This document shows, one piece after another, positions 9,781-64,000 of a stretch of DNA of 64,000 nt (position 1 is the first letter of the stretch; every line of letters starts with the position of its first letter). Where the stretch lies: the NCBI RefSeq assembly GCF_029867415.1, contig NW_026705322.1, positions 310,001 to 374,000 of the forward strand. Direction: 5' to 3'. Source of the DNA: Vicia villosa (taxonomy: Eukaryota; Streptophyta; Magnoliopsida; Fabales; Fabaceae). Below the pieces are notes generated by a model. The model did not search any database, was not told where the DNA came from, and saw nothing but the letters and a program-made list of their open reading frames with translations. A program made the translations under genes and the position numbers.

Positions 9781-9860
9781 GTAAGCGCCAAGGTTTGGAC
9801 GCGGCGCGAACTAAAGGTTTCTGTGGTGTTCGCGGCGCAAAGAGAGTTTCGCGGCGCGTG
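9781..9860. promoter_or_regulatory. CGCGGCGC box cluster in element B LTR (left copy)
   Basis: Boxes start at 9781 (decayed), 9800, 9831 and 9850, giving pairs 19 bp apart in AT-rich surroundings. The right LTR repeats this at 22212, 22231, 22262 and 22281. ACGCGG fits the plant CGCG-box consensus for calmodulin-binding activators. That regulatory role is inference. Confidence 0.45.
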
Positions 9861-10705
9861 CTATACGAGTTTTAGAAATATGTTTTGATTTCTGGCTGTT
9901 GATGTTTTATGTTGGTTGTTGGGATCAAGCCTTAGTAGGATTAACTTGAGAAGAATTATAATTATTATTAGTGAAGAAATTGGTTTAAATTAATTAGAAT
10001 ATTCTACCGTTGGAATTGATTAATTTAATTAGTAGAAATTATAGTGATGATTCTTAGTGATGAGATATGTAGTTAATAGATTAAGTTGTATAAAGATGGA
10101 ATTGGTGTGAAGAAGAAATAGCATTAGTAATAACGATGATATATGTAGCAGGCTGAATTAGTAGCATAATTGGAATTAATAATAGAATTAACGAATAGTA
10201 GAATTGGAATTAAAATGATAAGAATTGTTGGTAGTAGATTAATTAATAAATTGAAGAATTAGTACCTAGATGTTTAGGGGCTGTTTTGTAATGATTAAGT
10301 TGATGCAATTGATGCACGTTTAAGTTGTTGTTTTCGTTGCTGTTGTTCTGGTTGGTGTTGTTGATACGTTGATTAAGTTGGAGGTCTTATGACCAATGTT
10401 GTTTAAGTTATTAATGATGCGTTGATTAAGTTGCAGGTCTTATGACCAAGGTTGATTAAGTTGTTTGCGATTGTTGCATTGTAGTGTTGTGACGTTGTAG
10501 TTGTTGTTATTGTTGCATGCATACATTTGCATATAACGTTGGCCTGGATTGGCAAAATGTTTAAGTTGGCCTTGACGGCACCTGTTTAAGTTGGCCTTGA
10601 TGGCACCTGTTTAAGTTGAAATGCCTCGATAACCTGGCATATGTTTAAGTTGGGAGTTCTGCTCCAATGGTACCACATGCATTTGCACAGTTGAGTTGCA
10701 TTTGA

Positions 10706-10790
10706 AGTTGTTGTTGTTATTACGTTGTTGTTGTTGTTGTTATAAGTTGTTGTTGTTGTTATAAGTTGTTGTTGTTATACTTGTTGTTGA
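10706..10790. repeat. (GTT)n microsatellite
   Basis: GTTGTTGTT runs broken by ATTAC and ATAA. The array is shorter in the right LTR copy (about 23138-23195). Confidence 0.85.
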
Positions 10791-11408
10791 TAAATAATTA
10801 TTATAACCGTTGTTGCTATTTGTTATTATAACTGTTGTTTGAATAAGTATGAAGTGGTGAAATTGTATGATCTAATCTTAATATATTATTTATCATACGC
10901 TTGTTTATATTGTTGGATATCTCACCCCTTCTGAATGATGTTTCCCTACCATGGGAAATGGACAGGTACTCAAGATAGCAGTGGATGTTTGAAGTGATTT
11001 TATGAAGTCTTTAGTTACTGTTAGTTCGAGTTGGGTCTTGCTCTGATACGTAGCACTCGGGTGGATGAACGATTGTATTTTAATTGTTGTTATAACTATA
11101 AGTTGTTAAATTTTAAGTGGAACTTATGAAGTAATATGACGTTGGTGAAGTTGTTTTAGTTTAATAAAAATATTATGCGAAGTGAAGTTGAATAATTGAT
11201 ATTATTATTATTATTAATAAAAGTTGTTTTATTTTTTAAAAGAGTAAACAGGTTTTATCGTTTCATCCGAGTTATGTGCTATGTATCTATGATATATGTG
11301 ATTAAGTTGTTTGTTGTTTTACGTTGAATGTGACATCCCAATTGTATATTGAATTTCCGCACTCTGATTTTATTAAATATTCGTTGGGTAGATTTGGGGT
11401 GTTACAAT

Positions 11409-11420
11409 TGGTATCAGAGC
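11409..11420 (+). other. Element B primer binding site (initiator Met tRNA)
   Basis: TGGTATCAGAGC begins 2 bp after the LTR end, complementary to the 3' end of plant initiator Met tRNA. Confidence 0.9.
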
Positions 11421-12053
11421 AGGTCGGTCCGTCCGGCCAGAGTCGTCTAATGTTGTTTATTCCTCTGTACGCGACAAGTGTGTGAAACACTGTCAGTACT
11501 TGTTGTTTTCTGGTTGTTGCAGGTATTAGTTTGAGCGAACTGGGGGAGAAGAGTTGCTTCTCAGATGTGTTTTAGTTGGAAGTTGCAGAGAAGATTGTTA
11601 TCTTGGTGTTTCGGAAACTGAAGTTTACCGAAAGAATTGGCTCTCGAGTTATAAAAAGTTTGGGAGCGGGGAGTTATGTTAAGGACTGTTTGGAAAGTGA
11701 TTAAGTTGAAGAGAATGAGTTTTTGAGTGAAATTTCCATAAGCAAAACGTAGGAAAATTTATGAATTATTGTGAAACTTCGAAAATTCATAACTGGAGTT
11801 CTGGACGTCCGATTTGAGTCCCGTTTGAAGCGTTGGAAAGCTAACGAGATGAATTTTCTTATAAAAATAGTGGCAGCATCTGTAACAAATTTATTGGTGG
11901 CAGGATTATGTTGGAAAGAAATGAAATTGTCCGTTTGAGTAAACATCGTGTCAACTGTTGACGAAGGGACAATGATTAAGTGTAGGATTATTGTAGATCT
12001 TGTTATGGATTGTTAGTAAGTAATTATAAGAGTTGTTGTAGTTGTTAGAAGTA

Positions 12054-12058
12054 CGAAG
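12054..12058. other. Target site duplication CGAAG, left of element C
   Basis: CGAAG recurs at 20217-20221 directly after element C. Confidence 0.95.
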
Positions 12059-61980: not shown

Positions 61981-62110
61981 TATATATATATATATATATA
62001 TATATATATATATATATATATATATATATATATATATATATATATATATATATATATATATATATATATATATATATATATATATATATATATATATATA
62101 TATATATATA
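61981..62110. repeat. (TA)65 microsatellite
   Basis: 130 bp of perfect TA repeats, ending exactly at the left end of the MITE. Two long 'YIYIYI' ORFs here are artefacts of the repeat. Confidence 0.97.
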
Positions 62111-62310
62111 CTCCAAGAGTAAGTGTAGAAGAGTAGAAGAGTTACTCCAAATCTTAACCATTATTATCATTAATCTAACGGCTTTAATTAATTTATTATG
62201 TAGAAAAATATTTCCTAAAATAATTAGATTAAAAAATTAATTAAAATCGTTAAATTAATGAAAATCAATGGTTAAGATTTGGAGTAACTCTTCTACACTT
62301 ACTCTTGGAG
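62111..62310. mobile_element. 200-bp MITE inserted in (TA)n, TA target duplication
   Basis: The left arm CTCCAAGAGTAAGTGTAGAA and the right arm form a near-perfect inverted repeat over about 55 bp, including the ACTCCAAATCTTAACCAT part. A 9-bp duplication is in the left arm. TA flanks both ends, as for Tc1/mariner-derived Stowaway-like MITEs. The middle is AT-rich without ORF. Confidence 0.8.
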
Positions 62311-62322
62311 TAAATATATCTC

Positions 62323-62383
62323 ATATATATATATATATATATATATATATATATATATATATATATATATATATATATATATA
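62323..62383. repeat. (AT)n microsatellite, right of the MITE
   Basis: About 61 bp of AT repeats. With 61981-62110 it is probably one microsatellite split by the MITE. Confidence 0.95.
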
Positions 62384-62530
62384 CACATTGAAAAATTCTG
62401 GAACGGAGTTTGTGTGTTTCTTTACTACTATTTGTTGGATTTTTTCCTTCTTCTTGTTCTCTTAAGAAGTCACTTTTGCAAGTATCAACAAATATGGTTG
62501 AAAATATATCCATTGTAATTTCCTCCTTTA

Positions 62531-63361
62531 ATGTTGTCGACTTTCTCTAAGAGTGCTTGGGTCCTTGGACTTGGTGCTAGTCATTACATGACATTTAATT
62601 TTCCTTCCAATATTTTCTATATTATTATTGTAGATGGTTCTCGTGCATGGGTTGATGGTCGTGGAGACATTGATTTTCAATATTTTAAATTGAAAGACGT
62701 GTTTCATGTTTCTGGTCTATCAAACAATGTTATCTCTATTCGTAAGCTTATTGAGGATAATAATTGTGCAGTAATATTTTATATTCTCATTGTACTTTTC
62801 AGGATCTTGCAACGTAGAAAACAATTGGAGTTGCTAAGGAACATGAAGGGTTATGTCATCTCTCTAATGCATAAATTGATCAAAAGGTGTTGTCTTATGC
62901 ACTTCAATCTCAACTAGAGTCCTTTTTAACCTTCTAGATATGGCTTCAACACAAATGTCTTGCTCGTCCTCATTTTTCATTAATGAAGTGTATTTTTTGT
63001 CCCTATTTTAAAAATAATCTATTGAGTCTTTTAAATGTGATATTTTTCCACTTTTCTAAGCATAATTGGTTTACATTTCCCTCGAGTCATTATAAAAGTG
63101 TTGAACCATTTAATCTTATTCATTCTGATGTTTGGGGACCAACCCATGTGTCTAACATTTCTAGGACGAGCTAGTTTGTTTCTTTTATTGATGATTGTTC
63201 TTGAGTAACTTGGATTTTCTTGATGAATAATAAATCAAAAGTACGAAATTTTTTTATTAAATTTTGTAGCATGAAACAAACATAGTTTGGGAAAGGTATT
63301 AAAATATTACATTCTGACAATGGTAAAGAATTTGTCAATCAATTTTTTTTATAATTTTACT
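62531..63361 (+). pseudogene. Element M: copia pol fragment (protease, pre-integrase, integrase start)
   Basis: The protease region reads SAWVLGLGASHYMTF, where copia elements have a catalytic D-S-G-A; the Asp codon is gone. Next come VFHVSGLSNNVISIRKL and the pre-integrase part. After a frame change comes integrase with FPSSHYKSVEPFNLIHSDVWGP, SFIDDCS and LHSDNGKEF. Several stops (after about 63170, 63205 and later) and a truncation near 63361 make it dead. The motifs suit the Tork/Retrofit type of copia elements. No LTR is recognised nearby. Confidence 0.82.
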
Positions 63362-64000
63362 AGTAAATAGGCCATCATCTGTGAAGAAGAAATTCATAAT
63401 ATATCTTGGTTTAGTTTTTATGAAGGCAAAAGCTTATTAAAGAAGAAAAAGGTTAAAGTCAAGCTCAATCAAATTTCAAGATTACAAAAGTCATTAGATG
63501 TTGAACTAAAAGAAATTGATCATGAAGAAAAGATATTCAATTACAATTCACATTATGTATATCCATAAATGCTCAAAAAACATTCATCTTTTCATCTCTA
63601 AAGTTTCTAAGCATTCATACATCATAAATATTCAAGTCACAACTTCTTAAAGTAAAAAAAAATCAATTTTTAAATTAGTGTAATCAATTACACTATTTAT
63701 ATAATCGATTACATACTATTTAGCCAGAATTTTTTGACTGTTTTCAAGGGTGGTAATCAATTACACCATTCTTGTAATCGATTACACAATGCAAATATTT
63801 GAAAAAAATTGAAACAGTATCATTCCAAATTATTGCAAGATCTCTTGGAAATGATTTAATCTCTTTTATAAATTCATAAAGGTGTATTAGGATGTATTTA
63901 AGGCAGAATACATCAGATTTCAAATTACACTCTTTTACTAAAATTTAACATACAATTCAAAACTGTTTTTATGTGATTCATGAAGGTTGAGAAAAACACA
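63362..64000. other. Unassigned AT-rich DNA with paired GTAATCRATTAC boxes
   Basis: No coding signal. GTAATCAATTAC (63680) and ATAATCGATTAC (63701), then GTAATCAATTAC (63753) and GTAATCGATTAC (63774), form two pairs, each with starts 21 bp apart; pairs are 73 bp apart. By analogy with the other elements this may be LTR or interior of an element running off the window. Confidence 0.5.

What the first reader, a model, noticed from the sequence alone, without database searches (positions are those of the whole stretch)
9781..63785. Unrelated retroelement families share an architecture of paired palindromic boxes with centres 18-21 bp apart
Seen directly: B has CGCGGCGC-type boxes at 9781/9800 and 9831/9850 (19 bp). 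C has 13060/13079, 13130/13149, 13181/13200 and 13251/13271 (19-20 bp). H is the same at 57024-57240 and 60271-60487 (18-19 bp). K has GACACGG-type palindromes with centres 20 bp apart (38688, 38706). L has three GGAAATCGATTTCC pairs, all at 21 bp. The 63.7-kb DNA has two GTAATCRATTAC pairs, both at 21 bp. Neighbouring pairs are 70 bp apart in C and H, 72 in L and 73 at 63.7 kb. Box sequences do not match between families, so common descent of the boxes is unlikely. Roughly two helical turns within a pair, and about seven between pairs in two families, would put all boxes on one face of the DNA. I infer a recurrent selected module, such as a site for dimeric host factors or a silencing-escape or enhancer element. 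I know of no description of it as a shared feature.
Basis: partly seen in the sequence, partly recalled or inferred. Interest (0 to 1): 0.88.

Follow-up and report, generated by a model that had tools for sequence, protein, structure and literature searches.

The report
Helically spaced palindrome grid in retrotransposons
Jumping genes of different kinds in a vetch genome carry short mirror-symmetric DNA boxes whose letters differ between families but whose spacing is mostly close to a whole number of turns of the DNA helix, which suggests one shared way of being read by proteins.

Summary
The assembly fits Vicia villosa Vvill1.0. In searches of the whole genome for pairs of seven box classes, the listed pairs lie mainly 18-22 bp apart, centre to centre. 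Neighbouring pairs follow after gaps near 3, 4, 5 or 6 helical turns (class-level permutation p 0.00025). Spacers at one spacing are often unrelated, so copying of one repeat does not explain it. Between two related families, boxes are more conserved than their surroundings.

L and the 63.7-kb boxes share AATCGATT.

Palindromic repeated boxes in LTRs are known from Sireviruses (PMC2829016). The helical geometry, its presence in Ty3/gypsy as well as Ty1/copia, and its persistence while box letters change were not found in the papers I could search. The likeliest role is an LTR enhancer grid for dimeric DNA-binding proteins. The protein is unknown, RNA hairpins are not excluded, and nothing was tested at the bench.

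The parts
9800..9857 (+). B, LTR copy 1: CGCGGCGC boxes at 9800, 9831, 9850 (steps 31, 19); the same three boxes are at 22231, 22262, 22281 in LTR copy 2
   Evidence: LTR pair 8581-11409/21003-23815
13060..13278 (+). C, LTR copy 1 (element on the minus strand): eight GC boxes, steps 19, 51, 19, 32, 19, 51, 20, partly by a 121-bp tandem duplication
19449..19667 (+). C, LTR copy 2: the same eight boxes
14706..18371 (-). C polyprotein frame, Ty3/gypsy type (gag, protease, RT, RNase H, integrase)
   Evidence: Pfam
38686..38785 (.). K boxes of the CACGG..CCGTG type, centres 38694.5, 38714.5, 38776.5 (20, 62 bp); outside the K LTR pair 27357-28183/37751-38606
40231..40265 (+). L, first pair of AAATCGATTT boxes (21 bp), about 220 bp before a TATA-like site at 40478
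40935..41042 (+). L, second and third pairs (21, 51, 21), after the TATA-like site
45515..45610 (+). LTR fragment with GC boxes at 45515, 45533, 45584, 45603 (18, 51, 19)
57024..57239 (+). H, LTR copy 1: eight GC boxes, steps 18, 51, 19, 31, 19, 51, 19; TATA-like site on the minus strand at 56929
60271..60486 (+). H, LTR copy 2: eight GC boxes, steps 18, 51, 19, 31, 19, 51, 19; TATA-like site on the minus strand at 60176
63680..63785 (+). GTAATCRATTAC-type boxes, two pairs (21, 52, 21); TATA-like site at 63867

Best explanation
The boxes are binding sites of dimeric, dyad-symmetric DNA-binding proteins, laid out as a helical grid in LTRs, mostly in the part before the promoter, and in Sirevirus-like copies also in front of the env-like gene. 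Two dimers sit two turns apart on one face of the DNA and probably touch. Further pairs follow after about 3 to 6 turns, so that several pairs can join in one looped enhancer complex that drives the LTR promoter. A box can change its letters when another protein, or one of changed specificity, takes over; the geometry stays because the protein-protein contacts stay. All box classes carry CpG, so methylation may block binding and make the grid the point where silencing and activation compete. Shown: boxes, spacing, phasing, conservation of boxes between related families, place in LTRs. Inferred: the protein, dimer binding, cooperation, activation, the methylation switch.
For: Listed pairs with any gap of 0-30 bp allowed: TAATCRATTAC 68 of 85 at 21 bp, 13 at 22, 2 at 20, 1 at 23, 1 at 13, with 19 spacer clusters at 21 and 10 at 22; CAATCGATTG 42 of 50 at 21, in 11 spacer clusters; AAATCGATTT 44 of 50 at 21, 6 at 22; GTAACCGGTTAC 47 of 50 at 21-22; CCGCTNAGCGG 47 of 50 at 18-20; AGGTCGACCT 34 of 50 at 21-22, 16 at 40; CGCGGCGC 75 of 100 at 18-21, 25 at 29-32. 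Whole-genome counts 125+104, 837, 12,376, 4,972, 6,311, 17,703 and 14,880+14,283; reversed-letter controls 1+4, 0, 0, 0, 0 and 1 for the first six, void for the last. A palindrome of equal composition to TAATCGATTA had 3 pairs. Inter-pair steps near whole turns, p 0.00025. Boxes conserved between C and H and between L and L001 (46/48 against 98/128). CpG in all 8 box classes against 72 of 471 single palindromes (three classes share one core). TATA-like sites within 100 bp after the array in H, L013, L010 and 63.7 kb (for the last two the strand is assumed).
Against: No protein, expression, methylation or small-RNA data. Seven of 12 blind 10-kb places lack the architecture and several hold palindrome clusters at other distances. 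No TATA-like match in C or L014; in B it lies before the boxes; one L array and the env-side boxes of L013 are not before an LTR promoter. The K pattern is not above its reversed control (116 against 145). Six of eight arrays fold better as RNA than shuffles. The phase test pools few classes and rests on the first places listed.
Confidence: 0.5

Rival explanations
1. The pairs are kept as RNA hairpins, or are the source of them: two equal palindromes about 20 bp apart pair with each other, and the hairpins feed small-RNA silencing or serve the element's RNA, as proposed for maize Sireviruses.
For: Six of eight arrays fold better than shuffles (z -3.1 to -6.4: L, 63.7 kb, L013, L009, L010, L006); in L009 the two boxes of a pair are each other's exact reverse complement, a 17-bp stem with an 8-nt loop. 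Passages of PMC10760457 report small RNAs on palindrome clusters of maize Sireviruses.
Against: The GC arrays do not fold better than shuffles (z 0.06 and -1.45). Their central base points the same way in 29,163 listed-by-count places against 49 inverted ones, which gives a mismatch in a hairpin; in CCGCTNAGCGG pairs with letters the centre is the same in 24 of 38, complementary in 7. Hairpins do not ask for whole-turn steps between pairs.
Confidence: 0.15
2. Each autonomous family encodes its own DNA-binding protein that reads its own box, as VANC proteins do in VANDAL transposons (recalled), and boxes and protein change together.
For: Related elements carry different boxes with the same steps: L013 and L004 (70% alike in RT-RNase H) have AGGTCGACCT and AAATCGATTT; C and L006/L014 (pol alike) have CGCGGCGC and CCGCTNAGCGG. 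Sirevirus-like copies have an extra ORF next to the boxes.
Against: C has no frame of 150 aa or more outside its polyprotein. The extra ORF matches PF20167 only below its cut-off (26.7 and 29.0 against 45 bits). The same AAATCGATTT box occurs in L001 and L004, which share no DNA similarity in the search.
Confidence: 0.15
3. The boxes fix the rotational setting of nucleosomes or another architectural DNA wrap rather than recruit an activator.
For: Steps near multiples of about 10.4 bp and pair-to-pair distances near 51 and 72 bp.
Against: Exact dyad sequences of 10-14 bp are more than a rotational signal needs (established knowledge); C and H boxes are conserved letter by letter.
Confidence: 0.1
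4. Copying artefact: tandem duplication of a short unit and spread of a few families, with no constraint on spacing.
For: C has a 121-bp duplication. Palindromes also sit in plain tandem repeats of 69 bp (L012), 82 bp (L018) and 88 bp (window 49.2 kb). Most listed pairs of the abundant classes are copies of few families.
Against: Exact boxes with unrelated spacers at one spacing; several box classes with the same steps; boxes more conserved than surroundings between families.
Confidence: 0.07

Closest known systems
Repeated motif (RM) boxes of Sirevirus LTRs (PMC2829016; seen: abstract passage, sections 9 and 10, found passages)
   Same: Palindromic boxes, a different one in each family, clustered in the LTR before the TATA box and before the env-like gene; Tnd-1 has ACAATCGATTGT, Vitis CGGTCGACCG, close to boxes here.
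   Different: Reported as absent from the other retrotransposons compared and mostly with a CGG-CCG core. Here also in Ty3/gypsy, mostly without that core, and with a spacing rule; no spacing statement was found in that text. Its supplementary figures were not seen.
[quoted passage not shown] 2016; not held; known from passages of PMC10760457)
   Same: Palindromes in the LTR control region.
   Different: Read there as RNA structure drawing small RNAs; no helical spacing rule is mentioned in the passages seen.
Plant LTR enhancer repeats such as those of Tnt1, Tto1 and ONSEN (recalled, no call)
   Same: Short repeated sites before an LTR promoter.
   Different: Described family by family; no shared geometry with exchanged boxes that I recall.

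Membership tests
Sirevirus RM boxes | Palindromic box repeated many times (8 or more) in one element | tested here: met
   C and H: 8 boxes per LTR; L013: 8 plus 5 boxes in two clusters
Sirevirus RM boxes | Cluster in the LTR, before the TATA box | tested here: inconclusive
   Met for H; likely for L013, L010, 63.7 kb; not for B, C, L014 and the second L array
Sirevirus RM boxes | Extra boxes before the env-like gene | tested here: met
   L013 and L004: boxes between pol and an extra ORF; its Pfam match PF20167 is below the cut-off
Sirevirus RM boxes | CGG-CCG core | tested here: not met
   Only the K-type box (CACGG..CCGTG) has it; AATCGATT, AGGTCGACCT, GTAACCGGTTAC, CGCGGCGC and CCGCTNAGCGG do not; Tnd-1 is the published exception
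Sirevirus RM boxes | Host element is a Ty1/copia Sirevirus | tested here: not met
   C is Ty3/gypsy; L013 is copia; L, K, 63.7 kb, L009, L010 unassigned
Palindrome clusters that draw small RNAs | Small RNAs map to the boxes | not testable with these tools
   no small-RNA data at hand

The most novel reading that the evidence does not exclude
LTR retrotransposons of both superfamilies share one regulatory grammar: a fixed helical grid of dyad boxes, two turns within a pair and about three to six between pairs, in which the box word can be swapped while the grid stays. That implies one kind of multimeric protein scaffold with exchangeable specificity, host or element encoded and perhaps gated by CpG methylation, on which many repeat families of this genome have converged.
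Probability: 0.35. Interest if true: 0.9.

Novelty: new variant of a known kind. Interest (0 to 1): 0.78.

Why it matters
How plant retrotransposons are switched on, and what the host sees when it silences them, is open for most families. A spacing rule that holds while the letters change is directly testable (half-turn against whole-turn moves of one box), gives a way to find control regions of elements with no known promoter, and offers a bait, paired boxes, to fish out the protein.

Tried and rejected
Peptide repeat (21 bp = 7 codons) and a 21-nt small-RNA register: rejected, since 19, 20, 22, 40, 50, 52 and other distances do not fit. Chance: rejected. The reversed-letter control is void because CGCGGCGC reads the same backwards; one search was used instead. 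Linker clustering lumped most AT-rich linkers (15 clusters from 88 rows), so its p of about 0.01 is weak; one search replaced it. The lineages of L, K, 63.7 kb, L009 and L010 could not be settled. Searches of papers for box letters listed no plant-element paper; searches for LTR palindromes with helical, spacing or repeated-motif terms listed nothing on spacing beyond PMC2829016, as far as titles and abstract starts show.

Blind places (12 of 10 kb): L009, L010 and L013 have 21-22-bp arrays, L014 a 19-bp and L018 an 18-bp pair of a family box. L007, L011, L015, L016 and L017 have none, and L007, L011 and L017 hold palindrome clusters at other distances. L008 and L012 have a 20-bp pair, set aside because it consists of purine-tract repeats.
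Full report
WHERE IT IS. The window is G000:C399:310001-374000 of an assembly of 2,034,964,285 bases in 1,888 pieces. 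These numbers and C5 (174,244,307 bases) fit Vicia villosa Vvill1.0 (2,034,988,938 bp, 1,888 scaffolds, scaffold N50 174,244,450; passages of PMC10659084).

OBSERVATION. LTR pairs in the window: B 8581-11409/21003-23815 with C 12059-13826/18444-20201 between; K 27357-28183/37751-38606; H 56852-57857/60099-61075. C encodes a Ty3/gypsy polyprotein. B and C have TGTAACACCC ends and an initiator-Met-type primer site (motifs recalled). C and H are homologous. L and 63.7 kb share AATCGATT. K boxes are outside the K LTR pair.

BLIND PLACES. Eight places were fetched before their content was known (L007-L014) and four more later (L015-L018). A scan for clusters of three or more alike near-palindromes (6-bp arms, one mismatch, steps up to 110 bp) gave no cluster in three shuffles of the DNA then held. 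L009 (22, 50, 21), L010 (21; then 74, 21) and L013 (22, 51, 71, 21, 40, 21, 71; and 21, 41, 21, 72) have the architecture; with a family box and up to three mismatches so have L014 (19, then 53, 40) and L018 (18, then 92). That is 5 of 12. Other clusters have other steps: L007 (36, 42), L008 (69, 105), L011 (13, 75, 41; 37, 51), L017 (101, 98), and tandem repeats of 69 bp (L012) and 82 bp (L018).

WHOLE GENOME. Five classes have 90% or more of the listed pairs at 17-23 bp; AGGTCGACCT has 34 of 50 and CGCGGCGC 75 of 100, the others being 40 and 29-32. Only the first places of the genome are listed, so many rows are copies of one family. Clustering of spacers (3 or fewer of 10-11 letters different, either strand) gave 19 clusters at 21 bp and 10 at 22 bp for TAATCRATTAC; with 4 or fewer of 11, 11 clusters at 21 bp for CAATCGATTG. 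A control palindrome of equal composition had 3 pairs. The K-type pattern had 116 places against 145 for its reversed control; the control is itself a palindrome pair, and K adds no weight.

SECOND LEVEL. Steps between neighbouring boxes of adjacent pairs: CGCGGCGC 29-32, 48, 50-52; GTAACCGGTTAC 33, 43, 50-53; CCGCTNAGCGG 43, 53, once 111; AAATCGATTT 50-53, once 125; AGGTCGACCT 40, 61, also 72, 101, 122-123; TAATCRATTAC 42-55 and, as sums with a pair step, 63-72, none at 56-62 or 65-67 in 88 rows; L004 64. For the phase test I used steps up to 64 bp (for TAATCRATTAC up to 55), leaving out the longer ones, which may skip a lost box. At 10.4 bp per turn 35 of 42 distinct class-distances and 139 of 153 copies are within a quarter turn of a whole number. 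Moving the 14 modes at random between 24 and 66 bp gave as tight a phase with p 0.00025, and 0.00075 when the period was scanned from 9 to 12; the best period was 10.65. In GC arrays a 19-bp pair goes with 31-32 and a 21-bp pair with 29-30, sum 50-51.

SELECTION. Between C and H the 9-bp box cores are 70/72 identical, the rest 166/196 (p 0.005); with the other H copy 68/71 against 169/196. Between the two LTRs of C, which differ by changes after insertion, boxes are 68/72, the rest 198/199 (p 0.019). Within against between: 4 and 2 changes in boxes, 1 and 30 in the rest (p 0.001). L against L001: 46/48 against 98/128. So boxes were kept while the elements moved and, in C, decayed fast afterwards. 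Pooled over the LTR pairs of B, C and H the faster decay is weak (6 of 180 against 70 of 5,353, p 0.036); B has 0 of 36. Two of C's four and one of H's two box changes are C/T or G/A. All 8 box classes carry CpG against 72 of 471 single palindromes.

ANATOMY. A TATA-like site follows the array after 95 bp in both H LTRs, 62 bp in L013, about 85 bp at 63.7 kb and 29 bp in L010, 220 bp after the first L pair, and 260-290 bp in L009 and L006; B has one only before the boxes, C and L014 none (one strand each, assumed for L009, L010 and 63.7 kb). L013 is copia (RVT_2, GAG-pre-integrase) with boxes before a 532-aa ORF and again beyond it, as described for Sireviruses with env-like genes (PMC2829016). 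L004, 70% alike over 217 residues of RT-RNase H, has AAATCGATTT boxes at the same kind of place. L006 and L014 are alike to C in pol and to each other in the LTR but carry CCGCTNAGCGG; 19-bp pairs in L006 I read by eye. Box words change; steps stay.

MECHANISM. Exact dyad boxes, free spacers, near-whole-turn steps and, for CGCGGCGC, a fixed direction of the central base (14,880 + 14,283 places against 49; the 49 also lie mostly at 19-22 bp) fit proteins on double-stranded DNA better than RNA hairpins. Six of eight arrays do fold well as RNA, so a part in small-RNA silencing is not excluded. I put an enhancer grid for dimeric proteins first, at 0.5.

KNOWN AND NEW. Palindromic repeated boxes in LTRs are known in Sireviruses. 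The spacing rule, its presence in gypsy elements and its constancy under box change were not found in the searches, in a library without most subscription journals.

Noticed in passing
L012:5636-9859: Tandem repeat of about 69 bp with an ACGAAGTTCGT palindrome in each unit; its period is close to the pair-to-pair distance of the arrays, so a link between arrays and satellites is possible.
   Followed up: partly
L018:1987-2805: Tandem repeat of 82 bp with a CTTTCACTGAAGG palindrome in each unit.
   Followed up: no
L009:9015-9135: The two boxes of the first pair are each other's exact reverse complement (17-bp stem, 8-nt loop) although each alone is an imperfect palindrome; the only sign here of selection on pairing.
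   Followed up: partly
window 3467-4153: Tandem repeat, 115-bp unit, about six copies.
   Followed up: no
window 49151-49651 and 53384-54015: Tandem repeats of 88 bp and of about 143-161 bp.
   Followed up: no
window 16336: Single GC box (within 1 mismatch) inside the C polyprotein frame, away from the arrays.
   Followed up: no
L001 and L004: The same AAATCGATTT box and 21-bp pairing in two elements with no DNA similarity in the search made; either one shared host protein or convergence.
   Followed up: partly
window 54824 and 37745 (minus strand): Primer-site matches of Arg type (Ogre-like) and Asp type (Athila-like), names recalled; the K LTR pair carries the latter.
   Followed up: no
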